Part shown: positions 2 through 13,100 of the stretch, one piece after another
Layout: the number at the start of each line of letters is the position of its first letter
Position numbering within the stretch: the first letter of the stretch is position 1
Origin: Intestinibaculum porci
GTDB taxonomy: Bacteria; Bacillota_I; Bacilli_A; Erysipelotrichales; Coprobacillaceae
Length of the DNA stretch: 64,000 bases
Reading direction: 5' to 3'
Assembly (NCBI RefSeq): GCF_003925875.1
Contig: NZ_AP019309.1
Location: 1,426,001 to 1,490,000, forward strand
Position numbers and translations under genes: made by a program
Notes under the pieces: model-generated
The model's input: the letters and a program-made list of their open reading frames with translations, nothing else
Told to the model about the DNA's origin: nothing
The model's database searches: none

Positions 2-1065
2 TGTTCAATAAATCGCTTGAAAGGGATAAATACGGAGTTTATATGCGAAAGTCACTTATTTGTTAACAACACGTTAGAATTATACTATTTAGAATAGAAG
101 CTTTATATACAGATAAGAAACCATTGGTCGATAATGCTTCAGTAGAAATAAAACGTGCATTTTGGAAAGATTTTCGATGGTTTTCATCTAATAATATGGA
201 TTGGGCAGTGGCAGAGTGCCAGCAGTATGGAACAGTTAATACGTATTTGGACTTATTGTATAGATTCCATAAAAATCGAAATCTTACACCAGAGCAATTG
301 CTTGAAAAAATGCAACGGATTGATGTGATGGAACGAGGAAGTAATAATTCGATGACGGATTATTATTTAAAAGAATTACTAAAGCCATTACATGAGCAAT
401 ACATTGAAGATCGAGATAAATGTGCAAAGATAGCGCATATTGAGATTGCATTCTTTTATCTATTGAACTGGGAAGATATGAAGTGCTTTCAAAAGGAAAT
501 AAAGCATGATCCTGAAATGTATGCAGAAATGGTCTCAGTTATATTTAGACATGATGGTGATGATCCCGAAGAAAGAAAGACAGAAGAGTTTCGTAATTAT
601 GCGAAGGTAATACATAGGTTGTTTGATATGGCAAAGTTTTGTCCATGTGAAGAAAACGGCACTGTTAGTTATGATGAGATTAAGGTGTGGGTAGATAAAC
701 TGATACGAATACTTGATTCGAATCACCAAAAAGAAATGTTTGGATATGTGTTAGGAAGGTTGTTTGCATATGCACCTAAAGCAGCTGATGGCCATTATCC
801 ATGTGAAGCAGTGTGCCAGATTATAGAGGAATATGGGGATGAATCTTTACTGAGTGAATATAGATGTGAGTTGTTCAATAAAAGAGGAATATTTAGTCCT
901 TCAGCAGGTAGGGCAGAGAAAGACATTGCAGAAGGTTACAAAGATAATGCGGATTTTTTGAGCATTAAGTACCCGAAGACTGCTGATGTGTTTTTTAAAA
1001 TGTCACAAAGATATGTATATGATTCTGATCTAGAAAGACGACGTGCCGAAAATGGATATTTTTAG
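2..1065 (+). pseudogene. C-terminal part of a helical protein, frameshifted near its left end
   Basis: A 314-codon frame is open from 124 (TTG, no ribosome site) to 1065, and the same frame is open back to 67. A second frame, open from the window edge at 2 to 94, reads like its upstream continuation (it ends VNNTLELYYLE), so one base appears gained or lost near 88-97. The protein is predicted mostly helical and has a charged C-terminal tail (ERRRAENGYF). I recognise no catalytic motif. The tail resembles the ends of large helical-repeat proteins of unknown function, some near phage-defence genes, but that is only an impression. Codon use is AT-rich compared with the genes from 2.3 kb onward. 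It could instead be an intact gene starting at TTG 124. Confidence 0.4.
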
Positions 1066-1164
1066 AATTTAGTCTTTGAAATACAATTTGTAGAGGAAAT
1101 GTAGAGATAATGTAGAGGCTATGTAGAATGTAATGCATTTTAAAGGCTGATATTATTATCATAG

Positions 1165-1215
1165 ACAAACGTGAACGAAATCACCGGAGTGGTGACGGAC
1201 TTCACGTTTGTTTTT
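1165..1215 (+). terminator. Intrinsic terminator with long stem
   Basis: An 11-bp perfect stem (acaaacgtgaa at 1165-1175, ttcacgtttgt at 1201-1211) runs into a T-rich tract. The loop contains a second small stem (tcacc/ggtga). It lies about 100 bases after the fragment ending at 1065. Confidence 0.6.
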
Positions 1216-1250
1216 CTTTTGCAGAAGAATTGAATATGGACATTGTAGAG

Positions 1251-1295
1251 AGCGTCAGCTCGTAATCAGAAGATTGCGAGTCTGGCGCTTTTTTC
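1251..1295 (+). terminator. Hairpin with T-run upstream of the DUF5688 fragment
   Basis: The arms agcgtcagctcg and cgagtctggcgct pair with one bulge and one wobble and are followed by a T6 run. The hairpin ends only about 17 bases before the GTG assigned to the next reading frame, so it may be an attenuator rather than a plain gene end. Confidence 0.5.
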
Positions 1296-1311
1296 ATGTC
1301 CGCAATTCCGG

Positions 1312-1758
1312 GTGACGATTCGGATCAACCAAATCAAAAACAAAAAGGAAAACAAAACTATAGATTATGAACAGTTCAAAGAACGAATCGAAGAGGATCT
1401 TCACCAGGCACTTGCTGATCATGGTATTGATGCAAACCTCAGTCAGCATCACGTTGAGAAGCTGAATGCTTCCTATGATGCACTTAGCGTCACTCCGGAG
1501 GGCAGTCACATCGGTGTGAATGCAAATCTCAGTGCCATGTTCGAGGCAATCGAGAATGGTCAGGATTACAACGAGGTAGTGTCCAGAGCATCTGAATCTA
1601 TCATCGCCAGTATCGAGAACACTCCTGAGATCAATGTGGAGGATCTTACCAATTATAATGAGATGAAGAGCAAGCTGGCAATGGAAGTTGTTTCTGCTGA
1701 TCGTAATGCTGAGATGCTTGAGAATGTTCCTTATGAGCAGATGGAAGCGGCAGAATAA
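1312..1758 (+). pseudogene. Truncated DUF5688-family protein
   Basis: The 148-residue product matches, by recall, the N-terminal half of the DUF5688 family: a FKERIEEDL opening, then VTPEGSHIGVN, then the block NAEMLENVPYEQME. That family occurs in large paralogous sets in Lachnospiraceae and their relatives, often on mobile DNA, and its function is unknown. Full-length members are roughly twice this long and continue after VPYEQME; here the frame ends three residues later (AAE), so the C-terminal half is missing. The GTG at 1312 has no convincing ribosome site. An ATG at 1296 opens a different frame of only 24 codons, another sign of decay. It may still be expressed as a short protein. Confidence 0.55.
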
Positions 1759-1824
1759 AAATATGGTAATCATTAGGTGTCCCTTTTGACTACCGTTTTT
1801 TTATTAAAAATTAAAGAGGAGCCG

Positions 1825-1874
1825 GATCACTCCGACTCCTCCAAGTATGTGTCCGCAAACACATACCCCAATTG
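1825..1874. repeat. Two adjacent short hairpins in a gene-free stretch
   Basis: A 9-bp GGAGCCGGA/TCCGACTCC hairpin (one wobble) is followed directly by an 8-bp perfect gtatgtgt/acacatac hairpin. No gene covers them. On the minus strand the first is followed by a T-rich tract and could act as a weak terminator. Confidence 0.4.
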
Positions 1875-1951
1875 CTTTCTATTATATACTATAAGCAGGT
1901 AAAATATGCAAGCATTATATGGAATTTTTTAAGGCCTTTCTTAAAAATAAA

Positions 1952-1990
1952 AAAGTCAGCTCACTCAAATTAAATTGAGTGAACTGGCTC
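1952..1990 (-). terminator. Hairpin with T-run on the minus strand
   Basis: Arms agtcagctcactcaa and ttgagtgaactggct pair at most positions. On the minus strand the stem is followed by TTTTTTATTTTT, so it reads as a terminator for leftward transcription. No leftward gene was recognised to its right before the hydrogenase. Otherwise 1759-2110 holds nothing else I can name. Confidence 0.4.
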
Positions 1991-2129
1991 AAATACAGCT
2001 TAACTGAATGACATTGCCTGTTTATGATATCTTTTTAAAATATTATAACATAAACAAGCTACAATAGCTGTTATAAAGCAAAAAATTATTGATAAAAAAA
2101 TATTCTATTAATCAGGATAATTTAAAAAA

Positions 2130-2250
2130 AGACTGAAATAAGTGTCGAAGCCTCGGCGGCACAGTGTCATGCCTGTATGGAAAGACGGATTGCGAAAACA
2201 GGATACCAGGTTGTGCCATCCCGAGGAGACTATCGATAGTCTCCTTTCTC
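2130..2250 (+). ncRNA. Structured small RNA candidate with its own terminator
   Basis: The stretch folds into a long closing stem: cctcgg-c-ggcac at 2151-2162 pairs with gtgcc-atc-ccgagg at 2212-2226. An inner stem (cctgt/acagg) lies inside. It is followed at once by a perfect 20-base palindrome (2225-2244) and a pyrimidine run, that is, an intrinsic terminator. The last two bases of the closing stem are also the first two of the terminator stem, so the folds compete slightly. A separate promoter for the hydrogenase lies downstream, so this is probably an independent transcript and not its leader. I compared it from memory with SRP RNA, 6S RNA and common riboswitches and found no signature motif. 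Confidence 0.45.
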
Positions 2251-2263
2251 TTTGATGAAAACC

Positions 2264-2293
2264 TTTTCAAAAAGGCGTGAAAAGGCTATAATA
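2264..2293 (+). promoter_or_regulatory. Sigma-A promoter for the hydrogenase gene
   Basis: TTTTCA (2264-2269) and a perfect TATAAT (2288-2293) are separated by 18 bases. The ATG lies about 30 bases downstream, after a GAGGAGG ribosome site. Confidence 0.6.
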
Positions 2294-2321
2294 AAAATAG
2301 TTATCGAGGAGGTTATTTATC

Positions 2322-3854
2322 ATGAAAGGTGTGGATACACAAAAATCGAGAATTCGTCATATGGTCTTTACGGAAGTTGCTCGTTTAGCCTATGAAGGGG
2401 GAGGACCAGAAAAACTTGATGAACTCCCCTATAAGATTATCCCAGGTGAAATTGCGACTTATCGTGATTCCATTTTCCTGGAAAGAGCGATTGTCGGTGA
2501 ACGTTTAAGAGCGGCCATGGGGTTATCTTTACAGTCAATGACGGAACATGAAACATTCTCTCAGGGTGTTGATGAGAGTATGATTGCGAAAAAATATTAT
2601 GAACCACCACTTATTGATATTATTAAATTTGCCTGCCATCGCTGTCCGCAAAAGCGCGTCTTTGTGACGAACGGCTGTCAGGGATGCTTGGAACATCCAT
2701 GTCAGGAAGTCTGCCCAAAAGGGGCGATCTCAATGGTCAATGGTAAATCATTTATTGATCAAAGCAAATGTATCAAATGCGGCATGTGCATGAAAGCCTG
2801 CCAGTATAATGCGATTATTAAACAGGAACGGCCATGTGAAGCGGCCTGCGGGGTAGGTGCGATCTCATGTGATGAATATGGCCGTGCTGATATCGATCAG
2901 AGCAAGTGCGTCGCTTGCGGGATGTGTTTAGCCAGCTGTCCATTTGCGGCGATCGTTGATAAAGGGCAGATTTATCAGACAATCAAAGCGACACAGGGCA
3001 AAGATCCTGTTTATGCGATTGTCGCGCCAGCAATTGCCGGTCAGTTCGGAAAAGAACTGACGAATGAAAAGATGCGTGGCGCGTTCCAGGCATTAGGTTT
3101 TACCGATGTCTTAGAAGTCGCGATGGGGGCTGACTTATGTACTGTCGAAGAAGCCAAAGACTTCTTAAAAGAAGTGCCTGCAGAATTATCATTTATGGGC
3201 ACCAGCTGTTGTCCGGCGTGGTCGATTATGGCGAAGAAACTCTTCCCAGATCATGCGAAAAATATTTCCATGGCCTTAACGCCAATGGTCTTAACTGCTC
3301 GTCTGTTAAAGAAATCAGAACCTAATGCGAAGATTTGTTTTGTCGGTCCATGCTTATCGAAAAAACAGGAAGCAGCCCGTAAATCAATTAAATCTTATGT
3401 TGATTTCACTTTAACGTTCGAAGAAGTTGCTGGCATGTTTGATGCCAAAGGTGTAGACTTCGCGAAGATTCCTGATGGTATGCCACTCGTTCAGGCTTCT
3501 TCCGATGGTCGTGGTTTTGCGGCTTCTGGCGGGGTCGCTAATGCCGTTGCCCATGCCATTCGTGAATTAGATCCTGATCGTGAAATCAAAGTCGCTTCTG
3601 CCGAAGGTTTAGCCGATTGTAAGAAATTAATGCGTGATGCCACGAGAGGTAAATATGATGGTTATCTGATTGAAGGGATGGCTTGCCCAGGCGGCTGTAT
3701 TGGCGGCGCTGGAACACTGCAGTCAGTGATGAAGTCAACAAGATCATTGAAGACTTCTCAGAAAGAAGCAAAATTCAGTGAATCCATTGAATCTAACTTC
3801 ACGAACCTGATTGAAGACCTTGAAAACTTTAATGAAGATGTCGTTGATGACTAA
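2322..3854 (+). CDS. [FeFe]-hydrogenase, monomeric, group-B-like
   Basis: This 510-residue enzyme would make or oxidise H2 in the cytoplasm, using ferredoxin as electron partner (family knowledge). An N-terminal helical region of about 100 residues precedes Cys-rich ferredoxin-like segments (CHRCPQ, CLEHPCQEVCP, CIKCGMCMKAC, CVACGMCLASC) that should hold several [4Fe-4S] clusters. The H-cluster domain follows with all three signatures: TSCCPAW (Cys296/297), GPCLSKK (Cys344) and MACPGGCIGG (Cys455, Cys459). TSCCPAW, and GPC in place of the usual MPC, fit group B better than the well-studied group A enzymes. No HydEFG maturation gene is in the window. It sits alone between its own promoter and terminator, with a GAGGAGG site before the ATG. 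Confidence 0.9.
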   Translation: MKGVDTQKSRIRHMVFTEVARLAYEGGGPEKLDELPYKIIPGEIATYRDSIFLERAIVGERLRAAMGLSLQSMTEHETFSQGVDESMIAKKYYEPPLIDIIKFACHRCPQKRVFVTNGCQGCLEHPCQEVCPKGAISMVNGKSFIDQSKCIKCGMCMKACQYNAIIKQERPCEAACGVGAISCDEYGRADIDQSKCVACGMCLASCPFAAIVDKGQIYQTIKATQGKDPVYAIVAPAIAGQFGKELTNEKMRGAFQALGFTDVLEVAMGADLCTVEEAKDFLKEVPAELSFMGTSCCPAWSIMAKKLFPDHAKNISMALTPMVLTARLLKKSEPNAKICFVGPCLSKKQEAARKSIKSYVDFTLTFEEVAGMFDAKGVDFAKIPDGMPLVQASSDGRGFAASGGVANAVAHAIRELDPDREIKVASAEGLADCKKLMRDATRGKYDGYLIEGMACPGGCIGGAGTLQSVMKSTRSLKTSQKEAKFSESIESNFTNLIEDLENFNEDVVDD

Positions 3855-3858
3855 TAGG

Positions 3859-3886
3859 CTGGATCTCCTTGGAGATCCAGTTTTTA
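3859..3886 (+). terminator. Hydrogenase terminator
   Basis: ctggatctcc/ggagatccag stem followed by TTTTT, directly after the stop codon. The next 180 bases contain no recognisable gene. Confidence 0.85.
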
Positions 3887-4032
3887 AATGGCTTGTAACT
3901 GTTTATATGATTTGAAGAAAGGTTTCTATAAAGATGTCCTTACTATCGACCATTTGGCATACTATTGTCCTTGAAAAATAGGATTGTTGGATTTATGCGC
4001 TCCTGATGCATTTTTTTTAGTTCATACTAAAT

Positions 4033-4067
4033 AAAAAGCCGTATCCCTTAAATAAGGGAATACGGCT
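4033..4067 (-). terminator. Terminator of the secreted-protein gene
   Basis: An agccgtattccctt-type stem with loop taaat, followed on the minus strand by a T5 run, immediately after the stop of the leftward gene. Confidence 0.85.
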
Positions 4068-4068
4068 A

Positions 4069-4539
4069 TTAAGCTTCATAACTTAAATACACATTTTTGA
4101 TTTTATTGCCATTGATCTGGAAACACATACTTTCCGTTAAATGCTTGTTAAGGGTTTTAAATTCACCAGCCATATCAGATTTTGAAATCTTTTCTACGCG
4201 GACATTGCCTGAATTGACATTCATAACGGTATAGTACTTTGTCGATGGGCTGACATAAAAGCTGTAAGTATGCTGTTTCATCTTTGGATAATACTTATCT
4301 GTCCATTTGAAGTAATCATTATAAATGGTTTCTTTGCCTTTTTTTGCATCCTTCGTAGACATTAATTTTGGATAGGTGACCGTTTCGGCACTTAATGACC
4401 ACTTATTGCCTTTCACTTTAGCCCATTTTGTTCTTGTACAAATGAAATAGAGATAAGTGTCCTTTCTTTTGGCCTGCGTGTTAGCAGTCATGCTCATGAA
4501 CATGGCAAGACAAGTCAGCAGTGATAATAGTTTCTTCAT
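4069..4539 (-). CDS. Small secreted protein of unknown function
   Basis: The 156-residue product starts with a clear signal peptide: MKK, a hydrophobic LLSLLTCLAMFM core, and a likely cleavage after ANTQA. The mature part is rich in Lys, Thr and Tyr and has only one cysteine, a composition typical of small exported proteins of gut Firmicutes. I recognise no domain. The ribosome-binding region is unusual: it lies in six tandem GGAA units immediately upstream of the ATG, so the number of Shine-Dalgarno-like cores can change by replication slippage. The gene is monocistronic, with its own terminator, and faces away from the ABC-F gene. Confidence 0.7.
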   Translation of the reverse strand: MKKLLSLLTCLAMFMSMTANTQAKRKDTYLYFICTRTKWAKVKGNKWSLSAETVTYPKLMSTKDAKKGKETIYNDYFKWTDKYYPKMKQHTYSFYVSPSTKYYTVMNVNSGNVRVEKISKSDMAGEFKTLNKHLTESMCFQINGNKIKNVYLSYEA

Positions 4540-4544
4540 AATCT

Positions 4545-4568
4545 TTCCTTCCTTCCTTCCTTCCTTCC
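4545..4568 (-). repeat. Tetranucleotide repeat (GGAA)6 covering a ribosome binding site
   Basis: Six perfect TTCC units on the + strand read GGAA x6 on the coding strand and end 5 bases before the start codon at 4539. Degenerate units (GAAA, AGAA) flank it. Confidence 0.8.
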
Positions 4569-4638
4569 TTCTTTCTTATAAGGTCATTATAACACTTATA
4601 AATGATCATCTTTAGGATTATTGACATGATAAAAAATA

Positions 4639-4666
4639 TTGACTTAAATTTAAAAATCAGTATAAT
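4639..4666 (+). promoter_or_regulatory. Promoter of the ABC-F leader and gene
   Basis: TTGACT (4639-4644), a 16-base spacer and a perfect TATAAT (4661-4666). The predicted transcript begins about 20 bases before the leader peptide start. Confidence 0.7.
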
Positions 4667-4692
4667 AGAGCGCACGAAAGGGTGTGATATCA

Positions 4693-4737
4693 ATGAGAAT
4701 CGTAAGATACGGACATGTCGCATCTGCACACATTTAA
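4693..4737 (+). CDS. 14-residue leader peptide upstream of ABC-F gene
   Basis: The short frame encodes MRIVRYGHVASAHI and is preceded by an AAAGGG ribosome site at good spacing. Its middle part (4711-4721) forms one arm of an 11-bp stem with one bulge. The partner arm (4745-4756) lies between the leader stop and the ABC-F ribosome site. Short translated leaders with alternative hairpins are a known control device for antibiotic-resistance ABC-F genes, including vmlR of Bacillus subtilis. That the peptide acts this way here is inferred. The frame is short enough to occur by chance, but promoter, ribosome site and stem together support it. Confidence 0.5.
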   Translation: MRIVRYGHVASAHI

Positions 4738-4781
4738 ATAAAAAGCGACATCGTCCATCACAATAACATCATAGGAGGACG
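4711..4781 (+). promoter_or_regulatory. Possible attenuator hairpins between leader peptide and ABC-F gene
   Basis: GGAC-ATGTCGC (4711-4721) can pair with GCGACAT-c-GTCC (4745-4756). The second arm contains CGTCC (4752-4756), which could instead pair with GGACG (4777-4781) right after the AGGAGG, masking the ABC-F ribosome site. The two pairings are mutually exclusive. Confidence 0.4.
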
Positions 4782-4786
4782 AAGAA

Positions 4787-6259
4787 ATGCCGCAAATACA
4801 TATTAACCATTTAACATTTGCCTATGAAGGCAGTCAAGAAACATTATTTGAAGATTTAAATTTACATTTAAATTGTCGCGAACGTTATGGTCTTATTGGC
4901 CGTAATGGAAGGGGAAAGAGTACGCTTTTAAAGCTGATGGCAGGAATACTGCCAACAACGGCGATTACCAAAGACTGTGAAACGCGTTATTTTCCTGATG
5001 AAGTTCAAGAGGATCAGGCAGAAACGATTGAGGTTTTAAGAAGGCTTTATCCTTATAGTGAAGATTATGAATTTATGATCGAAGCGGAAGAGCTCGCTTT
5101 AGCGATGGAAAAGCTGTATCAGCCTTTTGCTTTCTTATCGGAAGGAGAAAAAATGAAAGCTTTGTTGGCGGGGGCTTTTTCTCATGATCATGATTTTTTA
5201 TTGATTGATGAGCCGACCAATCATTTAGATGCTTTAGGGAGAGAGGTCATAGGGCGTTACCTGCAAAAGAAAACGGGTTTTATTTTGGTATCGCATGATC
5301 GCCATTTGCTTGATGTAAGTGTTGATCATATCATTGCCCTCAATAAAACATCCATTACTGTCACAAAAGGCAACTATTCCTCATGGCAGGATAATAAAGA
5401 CAAAGAACTCGCTGATGAGTTAGCGCGCCATAAACAATTAGAAAAAGAGATCAAGCGTTTAAAGAAGGCGAGTGAAAAGACGAAAAACTGGGCAGATGCT
5501 GTAGAAAGAAGCAAGAACGGGACGAGAAATTCTGGCTTGCGCGTTGACCGTGGCTTTATCGGGCATAAGAGTGCGAAGATGATGCAGAAATCTAAAAATA
5601 CGCAAGCCCGCGTTACAAAGAGTATCAAGGAGAAACAACATCTGCTGAAAGATCTAGAAAGTATAGAAACGTTAAAGTTAGCGCCCTTGGACTATGGAAA
5701 TCGACCGCTTGTTGAAGGTGCTCATTTATCACTAGGGTACGGGGAGCCTTTATTTAGGCAACTTGATTTCACGATCAAGAGCGGTGATCGCTGCGTTATT
5801 GAAGGAGCTAATGGCTCTGGCAAATCGACTATCATCAAAACGATTATGGGAGAAGAGCATATCTTAGCGGGCAGCTTAAAAGTGGCTGCGGGGATCACGA
5901 TTGCTTATGTACCGCAAAACACAGTTCTTACTGGCCTTTTAAAAGATTATCCACAAAGCCATCGTTTGGATTCCTCGCTCTTTTTTGCGATTTTACGCAA
6001 GATGGGGTTTCCTCGTGAGGCTTTTGAAAAAGCCTGTGATCATTTGAGTGCGGGGATGAAGAAAAAGGTTTTATTAGCCCATGCGTTTTCGCAGTCAGCG
6101 CATCTCTATATCTTTGATGAACCATTAAACTTTATTGATTTGGATTCCCGTATGCAAATTGAACAGCTAATTTTAACATATAAACCGACATTATTATTTG
6201 TCGAACATGATGTCACTTTCTGTGAGCATGTCGCCACAAAAAAGATCGTGATTTCTTAA
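4787..6259 (+). CDS. ABC-F ribosomal protection protein (Lsa/Vga-like)
   Basis: The 490-residue soluble protein has two ATP-binding cassettes and no membrane segment. The first has Walker A GRNGRGKST, signature LSEGEKMK and Walker B LLIDEPTNHLD. The second has GANGSGKST, LSAGMKKK and IFDEPLNFID. A charged linker rich in Lys and Glu joins them, as in ABC-F proteins that enter the ribosomal E site and displace antibiotics. The weak second signature and the DEPLNFID motif are typical of the resistance branch (Lsa, Vga, Msr) and not of housekeeping EttA/Uup. Substrate drugs, possibly lincosamides, pleuromutilins or streptogramin A, cannot be read from the sequence. An AGGAGG site precedes the ATG. 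The upstream leader peptide suggests inducible expression. No terminator separates it from hcp. Confidence 0.85.
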   Translation: MPQIHINHLTFAYEGSQETLFEDLNLHLNCRERYGLIGRNGRGKSTLLKLMAGILPTTAITKDCETRYFPDEVQEDQAETIEVLRRLYPYSEDYEFMIEAEELALAMEKLYQPFAFLSEGEKMKALLAGAFSHDHDFLLIDEPTNHLDALGREVIGRYLQKKTGFILVSHDRHLLDVSVDHIIALNKTSITVTKGNYSSWQDNKDKELADELARHKQLEKEIKRLKKASEKTKNWADAVERSKNGTRNSGLRVDRGFIGHKSAKMMQKSKNTQARVTKSIKEKQHLLKDLESIETLKLAPLDYGNRPLVEGAHLSLGYGEPLFRQLDFTIKSGDRCVIEGANGSGKSTIIKTIMGEEHILAGSLKVAAGITIAYVPQNTVLTGLLKDYPQSHRLDSSLFFAILRKMGFPREAFEKACDHLSAGMKKKVLLAHAFSQSAHLYIFDEPLNFIDLDSRMQIEQLILTYKPTLLFVEHDVTFCEHVATKKIVIS

Positions 6260-6337
6260 AAAAGTTTTATTTCGTTGTTAGAAGAACGTAATTCTCTTGT
6301 GAAAGCTGATACATTTAAAGACGGAGGTACAAAATAC

Positions 6338-7885
6338 ATGGAAAATTCAATGTTTTGTTTCCAATGTCAGGAAACGTTCAAAAATACGGGCTGCGTGAAA
6401 GCTGGGGTTTGTGGTAAAAATGCGGATGTTGCGCATGCTCAGGATGTGCTGGTTTATGCCACTAAAAAATTAGCTCAGGCAGCGACTCAAAAAGAAGATG
6501 CAAGAGTGAATAAGTTAGTTGTCGAAAACTTATTTGCGACGATTACGAATGCGAACTTTGATGAAGATGATATCAATAAGAGAATTGCTGATACAAAAGC
6601 TTTATATGAAGAATTATCAGGGGAAACTTTCACTGAAGATCCTGCTTTTGTTGGGGTATTAAGTGAAAAAGATGAAGATAAACGTTCATTAAAAGAATTA
6701 ATCACTTATGGTTTAAAAGGTTTAAGTGCTTATTCTTATCATGCACATGTTTTAGGTAAAGATGATGAAAGTGTTGATGCTTTCATGGTTTCTTGTTTAG
6801 CACAGTTATTAGAAGACAAGAGCGTCGATGATCTGGTTGCTTTAACATTAGAAACAGGAAAATACGGTGTTAAAGGCATGGCTTTATTAGATGCTGCTAA
6901 TACCGGCACTTATGGCGCTATGGAAGCTACGGAAGTAAATATTGGGGTTCGTAATAATCCAGGGATCTTAATTTCTGGTCATGACTTAAAAGACTTAGAA
7001 TTATTATTAGAAGCGACAAAAGGCACTGGCGTAGATGTTTATACTCATTCAGAAATGTTAGCAGGGAACTACTATCCATTCTTTAAGAAATATGATAACT
7101 TTGTTGGTAACTATGGCAATGCCTGGTGGAAACAGCGTGATGAATTTGAATCATTCAATGGTCCAATCTTAATGACAACTAACTGTATCGTGCCACCTAA
7201 AGCAACATACAAAGATCGTTTATGGACAACGGGTGTGACTGCTTATCCAGGAGCACATCATATTGATGAAAACAAAGATTTCACTGCCATTATTGAACAG
7301 GCAAAAACGTGTCAGCCACCAAAAGAAATTGAATCAGGCACAATCGTCGGCGGTTTCGCTCATGATCAGGTCTTCGCTTTAGCGGATAAGATCGTGGATG
7401 CAGTTAAGAGCGGTGCCATTAAGAAATTCTTTGTCATGGCTGGCTGTGATGGGCGTTCATTAGCACGCAGTTACTACAGTGATTTCGCAAAAGGTTTACC
7501 AGAAGATACAGTCATCTTAACAGCTGGCTGCGCAAAATATCGTTATAATAAATTAGGCTTAGGCGATATCAACGGTATCCCTAGAGTTTTAGATGCAGGA
7601 CAGTGTAATGACTCATACTCATTAGTCTTAACAGCCTTAAAATTACAGGAAATCTTTGGCTTAGAAAGCGTTAATGATTTACCACTTGTTTTCAATATTG
7701 CCTGGTATGAACAGAAAGCTGTTATTGTCTTATTAGCGTTATTATCATTAGGTGTTAAGAATATCCACTTAGGTCCAACTTTACCAGCATTCTTATCACC
7801 AAATGTCACTAAAGTATTAGTGGACAACTTTAATATCGGTTCTATTACCACTGCTGAAGATGACTTAAAGTCATTCCTTGGTTAA
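6338..7885 (+). CDS. hcp: Hybrid cluster protein (hydroxylamine/NO reductase)
   Basis: The 515-residue cytoplasmic iron-sulfur protein reduces NO to N2O in vivo and hydroxylamine to ammonia in vitro (family knowledge). The N-terminal cluster ligands are Cys7, Cys10, Cys19 and Cys25 ([16 protein letters not shown]). Hybrid-cluster ligands are visible in GHDL, the THSEM glutamate, [32 protein letters not shown] and WYEQK. ATG 6338 is chosen because of the ACGGAGG site 8 bases upstream; an in-frame start at 6275 has none. It follows the ABC-F gene by 78 bases without an intervening terminator. It fits nitrosative-stress defence in an anaerobe. Confidence 0.93.
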
Positions 7886-7895
7886 GAGCTTACAT

Positions 7896-7938
7896 AATGC
7901 ATAGATGTACTTTGTATACATTTATGCATTTATTTTTT
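7896..7938 (+). terminator. hcp terminator
   Basis: A 13-bp stem atgcatagatgta/tacatttatgcat with one wobble, followed by TTTATTTTTT. Confidence 0.8.
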
Positions 7939-7971
7939 ATGTAAACCCTTTTCTTAAGAAATAAAAATTTA

Positions 7972-7986
7972 TGTGATATAATCACA
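7972..7986 (+). promoter_or_regulatory. Extended -10 promoter centred in a TGTGA-N5-TCACA dyad
   Basis: TGaTATAAT (7974-7982) is an extended -10 element. It is framed by TGTGA and TCACA, which form a perfect inverted repeat. The Rex redox-repressor site is TTGTGA-N6-TCACAA and the CRP/FNR type is TGTGA-N6-TCACA, so the N5 spacing is one base short of both. The dyad is about 135 bases before the HPr-D-LDH gene. A second possible -10, TAAAAT, lies at 8079-8084. Confidence 0.4.
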
Positions 7987-8118
7987 AGAAATAAAATTTC
8001 TCACAAAACGTTTTTGATTGCGATAAAAAAACTTTTAGATATTACATAATTTTAAGGGATATATGAAAAGAAATGTGCTAAAATAAACGTGTAAATATTT
8101 TAGGAGGCTTAATTTAAA

Positions 8119-9423
8119 ATGAAAGAAATTACTTACGTAGTTGACAATCCAATGGGAGTGCATGCGCGTCCAGCTGCATTATTAGCTCAGTTATGTGTGG
8201 GCTTAAAAAGTGCTGTTAGACTTGAATGCAATGGAAAGACAGCTGCCGGCAACAATGTGTTAGAAATCTTAGCTTTAGGTGCTAAAAAGGGTGATACTTT
8301 ACACGTAACTGCTGAAGGTGATGATGAAGAAGCTGCAATTGCACAGGTTAATGAATTATTACATGGGGAATTCGCAGAAAAAGAAGCACCAGAAGTATTA
8401 AAGATCGCTTTCTTCGGGACAAAGGATTATGACCGTGTATTCTTTAGTGAATTAGCTAAGGAAAAAGGTCCTGGTACTTACAACTCAGAAATCAAATACT
8501 TCACAACAAGATTAACTCCAGAAACTGCTCCTTTAGCAAAAGGTTATGATGCAGTATGTATCTTCGTTAATGATGAAGCACCAAGACAGGTTGTAGAAAC
8601 ATTAGCTGAAGGCGGCGTTAAATTAATCTTATTACGTTGCGCAGGTTTCAACAATGTAGACTTACAGGCTGCTAAAGAATGCGGCATCAAAGTTGCTCGT
8701 GTACCAGCTTACTCTCCATATGCAGTTGCTGAACATGCAATGGCAATTATGCAGGAAGCTAACAGAAGATTAGGTAGAGCTTACAACAAAGTAAGAGATA
8801 ATAACTTTGCTTTATCTGGTTTATTAGGTGTTGACTTACATAACAAAGTCTGCGGTGTTATGGGTACTGGTAAAATCGGTCAGTGCTTCGCTAGAATCGC
8901 TAAAGGCTATGGTATGACAGTCATCGGCTGGGATGCTTTCCCTAACAAGAAGTTAGAAGAAGAAGGTTTATTAACTTATGTAACTGAAGATGAATTATTA
9001 GAAAAAGCTGATTTAATCTCATTACATATGCCATTAATCATGGGTGAAGGCGGAACTTATCATAAGATCGATAAAGATGCTATCGCTAAGATGAAAGATG
9101 ATGTTATGTTAGTAAACTCAGCTCGTGGACCATTAATTGATACAGAAGCTTTAATTGCGGCATTAAAAGATGGTAAATTCCATGCTGTTGCATTAGACGT
9201 ATATGAAGGTGAAGATGCAAACGTTTATACAGACCGTTCTGATGAAAGATTACATTCTTCAATCACTGCACGTTTAACTATGTTCCCTAACTTAGTATTA
9301 ACTTCACATCAGGCATTCTTCACAAGAGAAGCTTTACAGGCAATCGCTGTTGTCACTATGGAAAATGCTCGTAACTTCAACGAAGGTAACGATTTAGGTA
9401 ACGCAGAAGTAAAAGCTAAATAA
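8119..9423 (+). CDS. HPr domain fused to D-lactate dehydrogenase
   Basis: The 434-residue protein joins two complete modules. Residues 1-88 are an HPr-like phosphocarrier with the motif GVHARPA and the phosphorylatable His exactly at position 15. The regulatory Ser46 of Firmicutes HPr is Asn46 here (GNNVLEIL), so HPr kinase could not act at that place. Residues 94-434 are a full D-2-hydroxyacid dehydrogenase: NAD site GTGKIG (249-254), catalytic Arg336 (NSARGPL), Glu365 (VYEGED) and His397 (TSHQAFF). Opening IAFFGTKDYDR and length match D-LDH, which reduces pyruvate to D-lactate with NADH. The AGGAGG site fixes the ATG. It has its own terminator. Codon use is strongly biased (TTA, GAA, GCT), suggesting high expression. 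EI or another HPr may phosphorylate it, tying lactate output to sugar uptake; this is inference. Confidence 0.92.
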   Translation: MKEITYVVDNPMGVHARPAALLAQLCVGLKSAVRLECNGKTAAGNNVLEILALGAKKGDTLHVTAEGDDEEAAIAQVNELLHGEFAEKEAPEVLKIAFFGTKDYDRVFFSELAKEKGPGTYNSEIKYFTTRLTPETAPLAKGYDAVCIFVNDEAPRQVVETLAEGGVKLILLRCAGFNNVDLQAAKECGIKVARVPAYSPYAVAEHAMAIMQEANRRLGRAYNKVRDNNFALSGLLGVDLHNKVCGVMGTGKIGQCFARIAKGYGMTVIGWDAFPNKKLEEEGLLTYVTEDELLEKADLISLHMPLIMGEGGTYHKIDKDAIAKMKDDVMLVNSARGPLIDTEALIAALKDGKFHAVALDVYEGEDANVYTDRSDERLHSSITARLTMFPNLVLTSHQAFFTREALQAIAVVTMENARNFNEGNDLGNAEVKAK

Positions 9424-9431
9424 TTTATTTG

Positions 9432-9460
9432 AAGAACAGTCTTAAGGCTGTTCTTTTTTT
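9432..9460 (+). terminator. HPr-D-LDH terminator
   Basis: aagaacag/ctgttctt stem with a TTTTTTT tail. Confidence 0.9.
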
Positions 9461-9496
9461 GCGTTAAAAGAGGTCATTACTGACCTCTCTTTAGGC

Positions 9497-9720
9497 TTAT
9501 TTCTCACCACTTTTTAGTAATAGTTCCATTTCTTGAGCGGACTGTTTCATGCCGCGCTTGATCCAGGTTTCTAAAAAGCCATAGACGAATAGGTAAAGAA
9601 TGCTTTGGCATAAGCTTCTAAGTCTTCATCTTCATCAGTGGGCATACTTGAGCGATGATTTATGCTGATCGTGATGGTGCAACGGCGCTGGTTCCGGTAG
9701 TCTTCACCTTTAGCGCCGTG
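9497..9720 (-). pseudogene. C-terminal remnant of a TetR-family regulator
   Basis: On the minus strand one frame reads SSMPTDEDEDLEAYAKAFFTY. After a one-base shift near 9590 the next frame reads FVYGFLETWIKRGMKQSAQE and ends in a stop at 9497-9499. This combination (acidic helix, aromatic-rich YGF segment, WIKRGMK) is typical of the C-terminal ligand domain of TetR/AcrR proteins. No N-terminal helix-turn-helix could be found upstream, where the frame meets stops. I take it as a decayed gene; a sequencing error could account for the shift but not for the missing N-terminus. Confidence 0.45.
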
Positions 9721-10011
9721 GGACCTTCTTCATTTTATGGGCAGGATTGGGCCACTCTTGGAGCGGGAATCAAAACCCTGAAAGAAAGAAAAGTGGGGGC
9801 GGCGCTATTTAGTGCGATGAGCGGGCAGGTCATTACGGCTAAGGAAATCGCTGATGGTTCTTATGTGCAAAAGGTGAAGCCGATCTTTGCAGCGATGTGG
9901 GCAACGCAAAATCCCATTCCCACCGTTGTTTCTTATGGCGCTTATGAACAAGGTGCAGCCGTTTGCCGCATCGAAGCTTATTTACATAAATATATGCCAT
10001 TATCTTCATAA
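9655..10011 (+). other. Open frame of uncertain reality, 118 codons
   Basis: The frame starts at ATG 9655 without a ribosome site and overlaps the TetR remnant on the other strand. The C-terminal half (ATQNPIPTVVSYGAY) faintly resembles the NPIP region of dihydrodipicolinate synthase, but catalytic Lys and Tyr regions are absent. I therefore regard it as either a gene remnant or a chance frame in decaying DNA between the D-LDH and ABC transporter genes. Confidence 0.25.
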
Positions 10012-10119
10012 ATATGATGTACAATAAAATTATGCATCATTGTTCTTTTTTCGTTCATAAAATTGTGATAAGCTTTCCTTAATCATCTTTTGATGAACTT
10101 CAAAATAAAGGAGAAACTT

Positions 10120-13100
10120 ATGTTAGAAATCAAAGCGATTGAGAAAGTCTATCATACTGGCAGTCTTGATCAGGTGGCTTTAAATAAAGTCAGTATTGCT
10201 TTTCGCGATAGTGAATTCGTTGCCATTCTTGGTCCTTCCGGATCGGGGAAGACGACATTATTAAATGTCATTGGCGGCCTGGACCGCTATGATGATGGTG
10301 ATTTGGTCATTAATGGTGTCTCAACGAAAGAATATAAAGATCGTGACTGGGATACCTATCGTAACCATACGATTGGTTTTGTCTTTCAGTCTTATAATCT
10401 GATTGCCCATCAGAGTATTTTGTCTAATGTCGAATTGGCCCTGACAATCTCCGGCATGAGTCGTGATAAACGTACAGAAAAAGCCAAAGCAGCATTAGAG
10501 CGGGTCGGCTTAGGTGACCATATTCATAAAAAGCCAAGTGAATTATCTGGTGGACAGATGCAGCGCGTAGCGATTGCCCGGGCCCTTGTGAATGATCCGG
10601 ATATTGTTTTAGCTGATGAGCCAACTGGTGCGTTAGATAGTGAAACCAGTGTCCAGATTATGGATATCCTCAAAGAGATCGCGCAGGATCGTTTGGTCGT
10701 GATGGTGACCCATAACCCGGAATTAGCGCATCAGTATGCCGAAAGAATTGTGACGATTAAAGATGGCGAAATTATCAGTGATACCAATCCCTATCAGCCG
10801 CCCAAGCATGCCCAGGTGGCGGACATGCCCAAGAAGAAAGCCTCGATGTCTTTCTTAACAGCGTTATCTTTATCGTTCAATAACTTATGGACGAAAAAAG
10901 CGCGTACCTTCTTAGTCTCTTTTGCGGGATCGATCGGGATTATTGGGATTGCGTTGATCATGGCCTTATCTTCTGGCGTCAATGCTTATATTGAAGGCTT
11001 AGAAGAAAAGACCCTGGCGCAGTATCCGATGACGATTTCCAAAACATCAATGGATTTATCGGCGATGATGGGTAATAATACCCCGCAGGCAAAGAAAGGG
11101 CAGGCGGCGGAATCGCAGACGATTTCTTCCATGCTCAACGGCTCTAGTACAAATGATTTAGCGCATTTTCGCGATTATCTGGAGAGTAATCCGCAAAATA
11201 TCAAGAAGGCTGTGAATGATATTGAATACAGCTATGATTTAACGCCGACAGTCTTTCGGCAAAAGAAAGGAAAAATCATCCAGGTTCAGCCTAATAATGC
11301 TTTATCACAGCTCGGCATTGGCTCGTCGATGTCAAGCATGATGGGCTTAGGGGATACCCAGATTTTTCATGCCTTGCCGGGAAATAAAGCAATCTATCAG
11401 GATCAGTATAAAATCAAAGAAGGCAAATGGCCGACCAATAAGAATGAAGTCATAGTCGTTTTAGGACGGAAAAATACAATTAGTGATTTAACGCTCTATG
11501 GCATGGGATTACGGAATCCGGAAACCTTAGAGGCGCAGATCAAAGCCTTTCAAAAAGGGAAGACAACTAAGAAAAGCAAACCAAAAACTTACGAACTCAA
11601 ATCATTTTTGAATCGCTCGTTTACTTTCCTGCCGCCAGCTGCCTTATATACTTATAACAGCAAGCAGAAAACCTGGAATGATCATTCGACAGATCAGAAA
11701 CTGCTTGCCAAACAAATCAAGAAAGGCATCCACGTTAAGATTGTCGGCGTGGCATCGCCAAAGGATCAGACGGAAAATGGGATGTTAAGCTCCGGTATTT
11801 CCTATTTGCCAGAGATTGATACAACGCTTCGTGAACAGGCCAAGACTTATGATGTTGTCAAAACGCAGTTAAAACATCCTAAGATAAATATTTTTACCAA
11901 TGAATCTTTTGGAAAAAGCAATGTGAAAAAAGCTTTTGATCCTTCGCATATGTTTACCATTGATGCCAAGAAGGTCTCTTCAGCGTTCCAGGTCAATAAA
12001 AACGCTGCCGGTAACTTATCGAATATGAAAATTGATCCCAGAACACTGCAGTCTTCAATCAATCCACAGGCTTTTGCGTCACTGATGCCAAAACTTGATG
12101 TCACGTCACTATTATCATCGGTGAAATTCAATCTGCCAGAAAAACAGACTCAGCAGCTGCTTACCACGATTGTGCAAGGCTATGGCGATTATCTGACAAG
12201 TCATCATATCTTAGATGAAAAGAAGCTCCAGCAGACGATGACGGATTTCTTAACATCTGATGAATTTAAGAAAGCGATGGCCAATAGCACGACGTCGAAT
12301 ACGAAAAGTCTGCAGGAGACGAGAAATGTGCTTTCAAAAACGATGCAGGATATTGCGAAAGGCTATTTAGCGTATGCACAAAAGCAAGCACATCCAGAGA
12401 ACTTTGAAGAGAATTTCAATCATTATATGAATTCGCCGGAAGTCAATACGCTTGTAACAAGCAGCGTCAATCAGTTGACGCCAAACGCCTCACAAAATCA
12501 GTTAGATGACAAAACCATTCAGGCTGTCTCTCAAGCCTTCCGGCATTATTTGAAAAAAGCGAATTTGCCAACAAGTAAACAGTTAGGGGAAGCTTTTACA
12601 GCCTATGTACGGACGCCGAAGGTATCATCGGCAATCTCTAAGGTGGCTATGTCGGCTATTAACACAAAAGATTTAGAAAAAGCCATGCAAAAGCAAATGC
12701 AAGCTTCTTCATCGGGGATGCAAAAGGCGATGACGACAATGATGGCATCGTTAACAAAGGGGATTGCTGCGCAGATTCAAAAGAGTATGGGCGCCCTGAT
12801 GAGTAATCCGTCTTCGCTCATGTCTTTTGATCCCACCGCTTTTGCGAAAGCGATCAAGATGAATTTAAGTGAACAGGATTTAAAAGCGCTGATGAATTCG
12901 CTTATGAATTCGTCAGATACAACTTATGAAGACAACTTAAAGTCTTTAGGCTATGCATCGAAAGATCAGCTCAGTACGATTACTGTTTATCCGAAAGACT
13001 TTAGCCGGAAAAAGAAAGTCGAAAAGGTTTTAGCTTCTTATAACAAAGAGATGAAAGCGCAAAAATTAAAGAAACGTGTGATTACTTATAATGATACGAT

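What the first reader, a model, noticed from the sequence alone, without database searches (positions are those of the whole stretch)
8119..9423. HPr phosphocarrier fused to D-lactate dehydrogenase
One uninterrupted frame carries a full HPr-like domain with His15 in GVHARPA and a full D-LDH with NAD motif and catalytic Arg/Glu/His. The HPr domain sits at the N-terminus of a metabolic enzyme that consumes pyruvate, the product of PEP-dependent sugar uptake. If EI phosphorylates His15, the PEP/pyruvate ratio could directly gate lactate formation. I know of no characterised enzyme of this kind.
Basis: partly seen in the sequence, partly recalled or inferred. Interest (0 to 1): 0.85.

Follow-up and report, generated by a model that had tools for sequence, protein, structure and literature searches.

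The report
HPr domain fused to D-lactate dehydrogenase
Some gut and rumen bacteria carry a lactate-making enzyme welded to the phosphate-carrying protein of their sugar-uptake system, probably so that sugar uptake can directly switch lactate production on and off; the join is real, old and conserved, and I found no paper that describes it.

Summary
Window 8119-9423 is one 434-aa frame: a complete HPr domain (residues 1-86) and a complete D-LDH (94-434). It is not an artefact. The window lies in a 3.2-Mb one-contig genome, and 87 distinct orthologous fusions were recovered from Coprobacillaceae/Erysipelotrichaceae and Lachnospiraceae.

(1) His15, Ala16 and Arg17 are invariant in 87/87 fusions. 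The HprK target Ser46 is absent from all of them (Asn 70, Asp 16, Glu 1), although the genomes carry HprK. Free HPr paralogues in such genomes keep His15 in only 19/27 and Ser46 in 19/27. (2) In a sister Lachnospiraceae genus the same HPr and D-LDH are two adjacent genes. LDH trees put this split pair next to a single fused clade, with 36 HPr-less D-LDHs outside; HPr trees agree weakly. (3) Enzyme I was found in 44/50 fusion-bearing genomes.

Best explanation: Enzyme I phosphorylates His15, and the phosphorylation state tunes the LDH, so lactate formation follows PTS flux while bypassing HprK. Phosphorylation is well supported by sequence; the effect on LDH and its direction are inferred. No biochemistry was found and the interdomain geometry is unresolved. 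It is a new variant of PTS-protein control of enzymes.

The parts
8079..8107 (+). Extended -10-like box TGcTAAAAT (hexamer 8079-8084) and ribosome-binding site AGGAGG (8102-8107)
   Evidence: Read in the sequence; conserved upstream of close orthologues (AGGAGG in L005, L006, L007; the box is TGcTAAAAT in L005 and TGcTATTAT in L006/L007). The generic sigma-70 scan did not list this site.
8119..8376 (+). HPr domain, residues 1-86
   Evidence: PF00381 80.7 bits; AlphaFold2 model of residues 1-88, pLDDT 89.5; Z 14-17 to most solved HPr structures
8161..8163 (+). His15 codon (CAT), the PTS phosphorylation site
   Evidence: H15 in 87/87 distinct fusions and in both split HPrs; 19/27 free paralogues
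8254..8256 (+). Asn46 codon, where Gram-positive HPr has the HprK target Ser46
   Evidence: Ser in 0/87 fusions (N70, D16, E1), 0/2 split HPrs (both Gln), 19/27 free paralogues
8365..8397 (+). Linker, residues 83-93, variable
   Evidence: Variable columns; pLDDT dips to 65 for residues 81-90
8398..9423 (+). NAD-dependent D-lactate dehydrogenase, residues 94-434
   Evidence: PF00389 and PF02826; phmmer 1.8e-94 to F. nucleatum D-LDH 5z21; Z 35.5 to 6abi
8467..8481 (+). Short insertion (residues 117-121, G-P-G-T-Y) in the LDH substrate domain, shared by fused and split forms
   Evidence: Column of Tyr121 is filled in 86/86 fused and 2/2 split LDHs and is a gap in 36/36 HPr-less LDHs; gap nearby in the alignment to 5z21
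8863..8880 (+). GTGKIG dinucleotide-binding motif (residues 249-254)
   Evidence: G249, G251, G254 and the NAD-type Asp272 are invariant
9124..9126 (+). Catalytic Arg336
   Evidence: Invariant
9211..9213 (+). Catalytic Glu365
   Evidence: Invariant
9307..9309 (+). Catalytic His397
   Evidence: Invariant
9431..9456 (+). Rho-independent terminator-like hairpin just after the stop codon; the gene appears to be a single-gene unit

Best explanation
A PTS-coupled fermentative D-lactate dehydrogenase. SHOWN: the in-frame fusion; complete HPr and D-LDH domains and active sites; one fused clade; a sister two-gene form; invariant His15/Arg17; no Ser46; EI present in the own genome and most others. INFERRED: Enzyme I passes phosphate from PEP to His15 of the HPr domain. 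The domain then exists as P-His when PEP is high and sugar influx is low, and unphosphorylated when PTS sugars drain phosphate. This state is passed to the attached LDH, most likely by docking or undocking of the HPr domain on the LDH substrate domain. My guess for the direction is that the unphosphorylated form (sugar flowing in, pyruvate made by EI and pyruvate kinase) favours lactate formation and P-His15 restrains it. Loss of Ser46 would insulate this HPr from HprK, so the enzyme would read PEP/PTS flux only. My step-wise odds: EI phosphorylates His15, 0.8; this changes LDH kinetics, about 0.6; the stated direction, 0.4.
For: His15-Ala16-Arg17 invariant in 87/87 distinct fusions, while free HPr paralogues in the sampled genomes lose His15 in 8/27 (Fisher p 3e-6, not corrected for relatedness). 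The hydrophobic helix-B residues that lie in the EI/partner-binding face of HPr (own knowledge) are strict here: Val47 87/87, Leu48 86/87. Ser46 0/89 fused+split against 19/27, with HprK in 11/12 genomes tested. EI in the own genome and in 44/50 fusion genomes; the six misses are draft assemblies from metagenomes. Two separate adjacent genes HPr + D-LDH in G471/L130 and G641/L154, sister to the fused clade in the LDH tree (98/92) and in the HPr tree (94/60): the partnership is kept in two arrangements. Precedent: unphosphorylated HPr binds Vibrio vulnificus pyruvate kinase A and stimulates it by lowering its Km for PEP (PMC5987630); an E. coli HPr-glycogen phosphorylase structure is solved (9s8b). 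The nearest solved D-LDHs are tetrameric and allosteric (PMC4230899), so there is a mechanism for a bound domain to act on.
Against: No experiment on any member was found. Asp46 occurs in 16/87; S46D is called 'impaired' in B. subtilis HPr (title of 1sph), so EI transfer may be slow in some members. The predicted model does not fix how HPr sits on LDH (pTM 0.58). Six of 50 fusion genomes show no EI, probably incompleteness. Residues shared by fused and split LDH may be plain shared descent. The fusion is present in only 7 of 20 genera of its own family, so it is not a general need of PTS bacteria.
Confidence: 0.55

Rival explanations
1. Tether, not switch: the HPr domain docks the LDH on Enzyme I (or a PTS cluster), so that pyruvate released by EI is reduced on the spot. 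Phosphorylation is only the docking reaction and does not change catalysis.
For: EI makes one pyruvate per phosphoryl transfer (own knowledge); the EI-facing residues and His15 are conserved.
Against: The EI-HPr contact is short-lived and EI might be hindered by a bulky LDH oligomer (own knowledge); the separate-gene form would lose the tether unless HPr also binds LDH. No structure supports it.
Confidence: 0.15
2. Carrier: the fused HPr domain is simply another phosphate carrier for EIIA proteins, and the LDH attachment gives co-expression or stoichiometry only.
For: Active site intact. EI-adjacent free HPrs of Lachnospiraceae also lack Ser46, so lack of Ser46 fits a transport HPr.
Against: The genomes have one or more other free HPrs. 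The fused HPr is a lineage of its own. Co-expression alone would not call for fusion in all 87 sequences or for a shared LDH insertion.
Confidence: 0.15
3. Structural domain: HPr serves only LDH folding or oligomerisation and phosphorylation is irrelevant.
For: Domain re-use is common (own knowledge); many HPr-less D-LDHs exist, so the LDH can also do without.
Against: Then His15/Arg17 should drift, as His15 does in Crh-like paralogues (lost in 8/27); 87/87 invariance argues against it. The split form keeps HPr as a free protein.
Confidence: 0.1

Closest known systems
Fermentative NAD-dependent D-LDH of F. nucleatum / P. aeruginosa / E. coli (LdhA clade; 5z21, 5z20, 5z1z)
   Same: Fold, NAD motif, Arg/Glu/His; 46% identity and Z 35.5 to 6abi
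   Different: No HPr domain; lack the insertion around residues 117-121
Free HPr (PtsH)
   Same: Fold, His15, Arg17, conserved helix B
   Different: Here fused to LDH; no Ser46, so no HprK site
Known HPr-containing fusions: EIIA-HPr (FruB/FPr, NF008319) and DhaM (NF008478)
   Same: HPr as a module of a larger protein; NCBIfam matches to the HPr part
   Different: There the partners are PTS phosphotransfer domains; here the partner is a catabolic dehydrogenase
HPr control of enzymes in trans (V. vulnificus PykA; E. coli glycogen phosphorylase)
   Same: HPr phosphorylation state sets activity, for PykA at the PEP/pyruvate node (PMC5987630; 9s8b)
   Different: There HPr is free and binds in trans; here it is covalently attached and dedicated
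Crh
   Same: HPr paralogue with a regulatory role
   Different: Crh lost His15 and kept Ser46; this domain does the reverse

Membership tests
HPr (PF00381) | Sequence profile and open-faced beta-sandwich fold | tested here: met
   80.7 bits vs cut-off 23; TIGR01003 71.2 vs 47.9; Z up to 17.3
HPr (PF00381) | Active-site His15 and Arg17 | tested here: met
   87/87
HPr (PF00381) | Phosphorylated by Enzyme I | not testable with these tools
   EI gene present in the own genome and in 44/50
HprK-regulated Gram-positive HPr | Ser46 | tested here: not met
   0/87
Crh | His15 replaced, Ser46 kept | tested here: not met
   His15 kept, Ser46 lost
D-2-hydroxyacid dehydrogenase / fermentative D-LDH | Both family domains, NAD motif with Asp, Arg/Glu/His | tested here: met
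D-LDH | Reduces pyruvate to D-lactate | not testable with these tools
   Inferred from the nearest characterised homologues
VanH (vancomycin-resistance D-LDH) | NCBIfam curated score | tested here: not met
   201 bits vs cut-off 540

The most novel reading that the evidence does not exclude
A fermentation enzyme with a built-in PTS sensor: EI-dependent phosphorylation of its own HPr domain switches D-lactate formation, coupling the PEP/pyruvate state to the fate of pyruvate without free HPr, HprK, CcpA or transcription.
Probability: 0.5. Interest if true: 0.85.

Novelty: new variant of a known kind. Interest (0 to 1): 0.72.

Why it matters
HPr is known to regulate metabolic enzymes in trans. 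A dedicated, covalently attached HPr on a lactate dehydrogenase would be a direct wire from sugar transport to fermentation output, testable with one purified protein. The family occurs in rumen and gut bacteria, including Sharpea azabuensis (L006). In that species the D-LDH gene was reported as highly expressed together with PTS genes in low-methane sheep (PMC5069950). The fusion is the only D-LDH of this clade found in that genome (G317, same contig position as L006), so it is probably the gene reported; I could not check the gene identifier.

Tried and rejected
Assembly artefact: rejected (87 distinct orthologues, and a one-contig genome). VanH: rejected by score. Rex or cre sites upstream: none shared with orthologues; a 15-bp palindrome at position -147 occurs in the window only. 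A conserved operon partner: the upstream DNA of relatives differs and a terminator-like hairpin follows the gene; I did not map neighbours systematically. Plasmid copies: no plasmid record covers 80% of the query. Wider spread in Clostridia: of 391 genomes sampled across the class of the Lachnospiraceae strain NK4A144, only that strain itself passed the cut-off. A paper on the fusion: nine searches, none found; the library holds open-licence papers only. Interdomain geometry from AlphaFold2: not resolved. The '12-fold' rise of the D-LDH transcript in PMC5069950 equals the rise of all S. azabuensis reads (937 to 11372 RPM), so it reflects abundance and not specific induction.

Full report
WHAT IS THERE. 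The frame 8119-9423 (+) encodes 434 residues without interruption. Residues 1-86 are a complete HPr and residues 94-434 a complete D-2-hydroxyacid dehydrogenase. The HPr part, modelled alone (pLDDT 89.5), superposes on B. subtilis HPr at Z 16.9, rmsd 1.0 over 86 residues. The LDH part superposes on F. nucleatum D-LDH at Z 35.5, and its nearest solved sequences are the fermentative D-LDHs of F. nucleatum, P. aeruginosa and E. coli. Catalytic R336, E365, H397 and the NAD motif are intact and invariant. The gene has an AGGAGG site and an extended -10-like box conserved in close relatives and is followed by a terminator-like hairpin, so it appears to be a single-gene unit.

NOT AN ARTEFACT, AND NOT ALONE. 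One scan of genome contigs gave 80 loci, all with the full fusion at 69-91% identity. With further whole-genome searches there are 87 distinct fused sequences. Fusions were found in 16 of 43 genomes (7 of 20 genera) of the window's own family, in one member of another family of the same order, and in 6 of 200 Lachnospiraceae genomes. Among 391 genomes sampled across the class of the Lachnospiraceae, only the strain used as the centre passed the cut-off. The fused LDHs form one clade with 100/100 support in which Coprobacillaceae and Lachnospiraceae sequences intermingle. I read this as one fusion event followed by horizontal transfer (inference).

A TWO-GENE RELATIVE. In G471 (locus L130) and G641 (L154), genomes of one genus in the sampled Lachnospiraceae, the HPr and the D-LDH are separate genes lying next to each other on one strand. 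In L130 the gap is 102 nt. In the LDH tree this pair is sister to the fused clade with 98/92 support and all 36 HPr-less LDHs lie outside. The HPr tree gives the same sister relation with weaker support, 94/60 (only 87 columns). Trees are drawn with a midpoint root, so a later split of a fused ancestor is not excluded. Either way the partnership of this HPr with this LDH survives in two arrangements. A short insertion around residues 117-121 of the LDH is present in all fused and split forms and absent from all 36 HPr-less LDHs. It is a candidate contact site, but shared descent explains it equally well.

WHAT THE HPr DOMAIN KEEPS AND LOSES. G13, H15, A16 and R17 are invariant in 87/87, P18 in 86/87, V47 in 87/87 and L48 in 86/87. 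Position 46, Ser in HprK-regulated HPr, is Asn (70), Asp (16) or Glu (1), and Gln in the two split HPrs. Among 27 free HPr paralogues from the window's own genome and ten others, 19 keep His15 and 19 have Ser46. Fisher tests give p = 3e-6 and 8e-16, without correction for relatedness. The own genome holds four HPr-type domains: a standard one (His15, Ser46), a Crh-like one (Tyr15, Ser46), one with His15/Lys46, and the fusion (His15/Asn46). EI is present in the own genome and in 44/50 fusion genomes, the six misses being metagenome-derived drafts. HprK is in 11/12 genomes tested. Loss of Ser46 is therefore not due to absence of the kinase. No L-LDH was found in 6 of the same 12 genomes, so in some hosts this may be the main lactate dehydrogenase.

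MECHANISM. The simplest reading is a PTS-gated LDH: EI phosphorylates His15 when PEP is high, PTS sugar uptake drains the phosphate, and the state alters the LDH. Precedents are in trans: unphosphorylated HPr lowers the Km of V. vulnificus PykA for PEP (PMC5987630), and E. coli HPr binds glycogen phosphorylase (9s8b, 9s8k). The nearest D-LDHs are tetrameric, with cooperativity and activation by FBP and Mg2+, and their physiological effectors are called uncertain (PMC4230899). By analogy I favour 'unphosphorylated = active', but nothing here fixes the sign. AlphaFold2 does not resolve the domain arrangement (pTM 0.58). Asp46 in 16 sequences is a caution, since S46D is described as impaired in B. 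subtilis HPr (title of 1sph).

KNOWN OR NEW. No paper on this fusion was found in nine full-text searches, within an open-licence library. Sequence databases surely hold these proteins, so the novelty is in recognition and mechanism, not in first sight of the sequence. HPr in fusions and HPr as an enzyme regulator are both known; an HPr dedicated to, and fused with, a fermentation dehydrogenase is to my knowledge not. I class it as a new variant of a known kind.

Noticed in passing
window 9498-10070, - strand: Remnant of a regulator-like gene (I guess TetR type, from its make-up only) broken across several frames; the listed + strand ORF 9655-10011 lies antisense to it and is probably spurious.
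   Followed up: partly
L157, L163, L166, L167: In Lachnospiraceae the HPr genes next to EI have Lys or Arg rather than Ser at position 46, while other paralogues keep Ser46: a possible division of labour between transport and HprK-regulated HPrs.
   Followed up: partly
L003, L156, L164, L168, L180-L182, L185: Crh-like HPr paralogues with Tyr, Glu or Asp in place of His15 in Coprobacillaceae and Lachnospiraceae.
   Followed up: no
window 6275-7885: A hydroxylamine reductase (hybrid-cluster protein)-like gene, named from its sequence by eye, lies directly upstream, with its own terminator-like hairpin at 7896-7930.
   Followed up: no
window 7972-7986: Palindrome TGTGATATAATCACA overlapping a -10-like TATAAT, found in the window but not upstream of the 12 orthologues examined.
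   Followed up: partly
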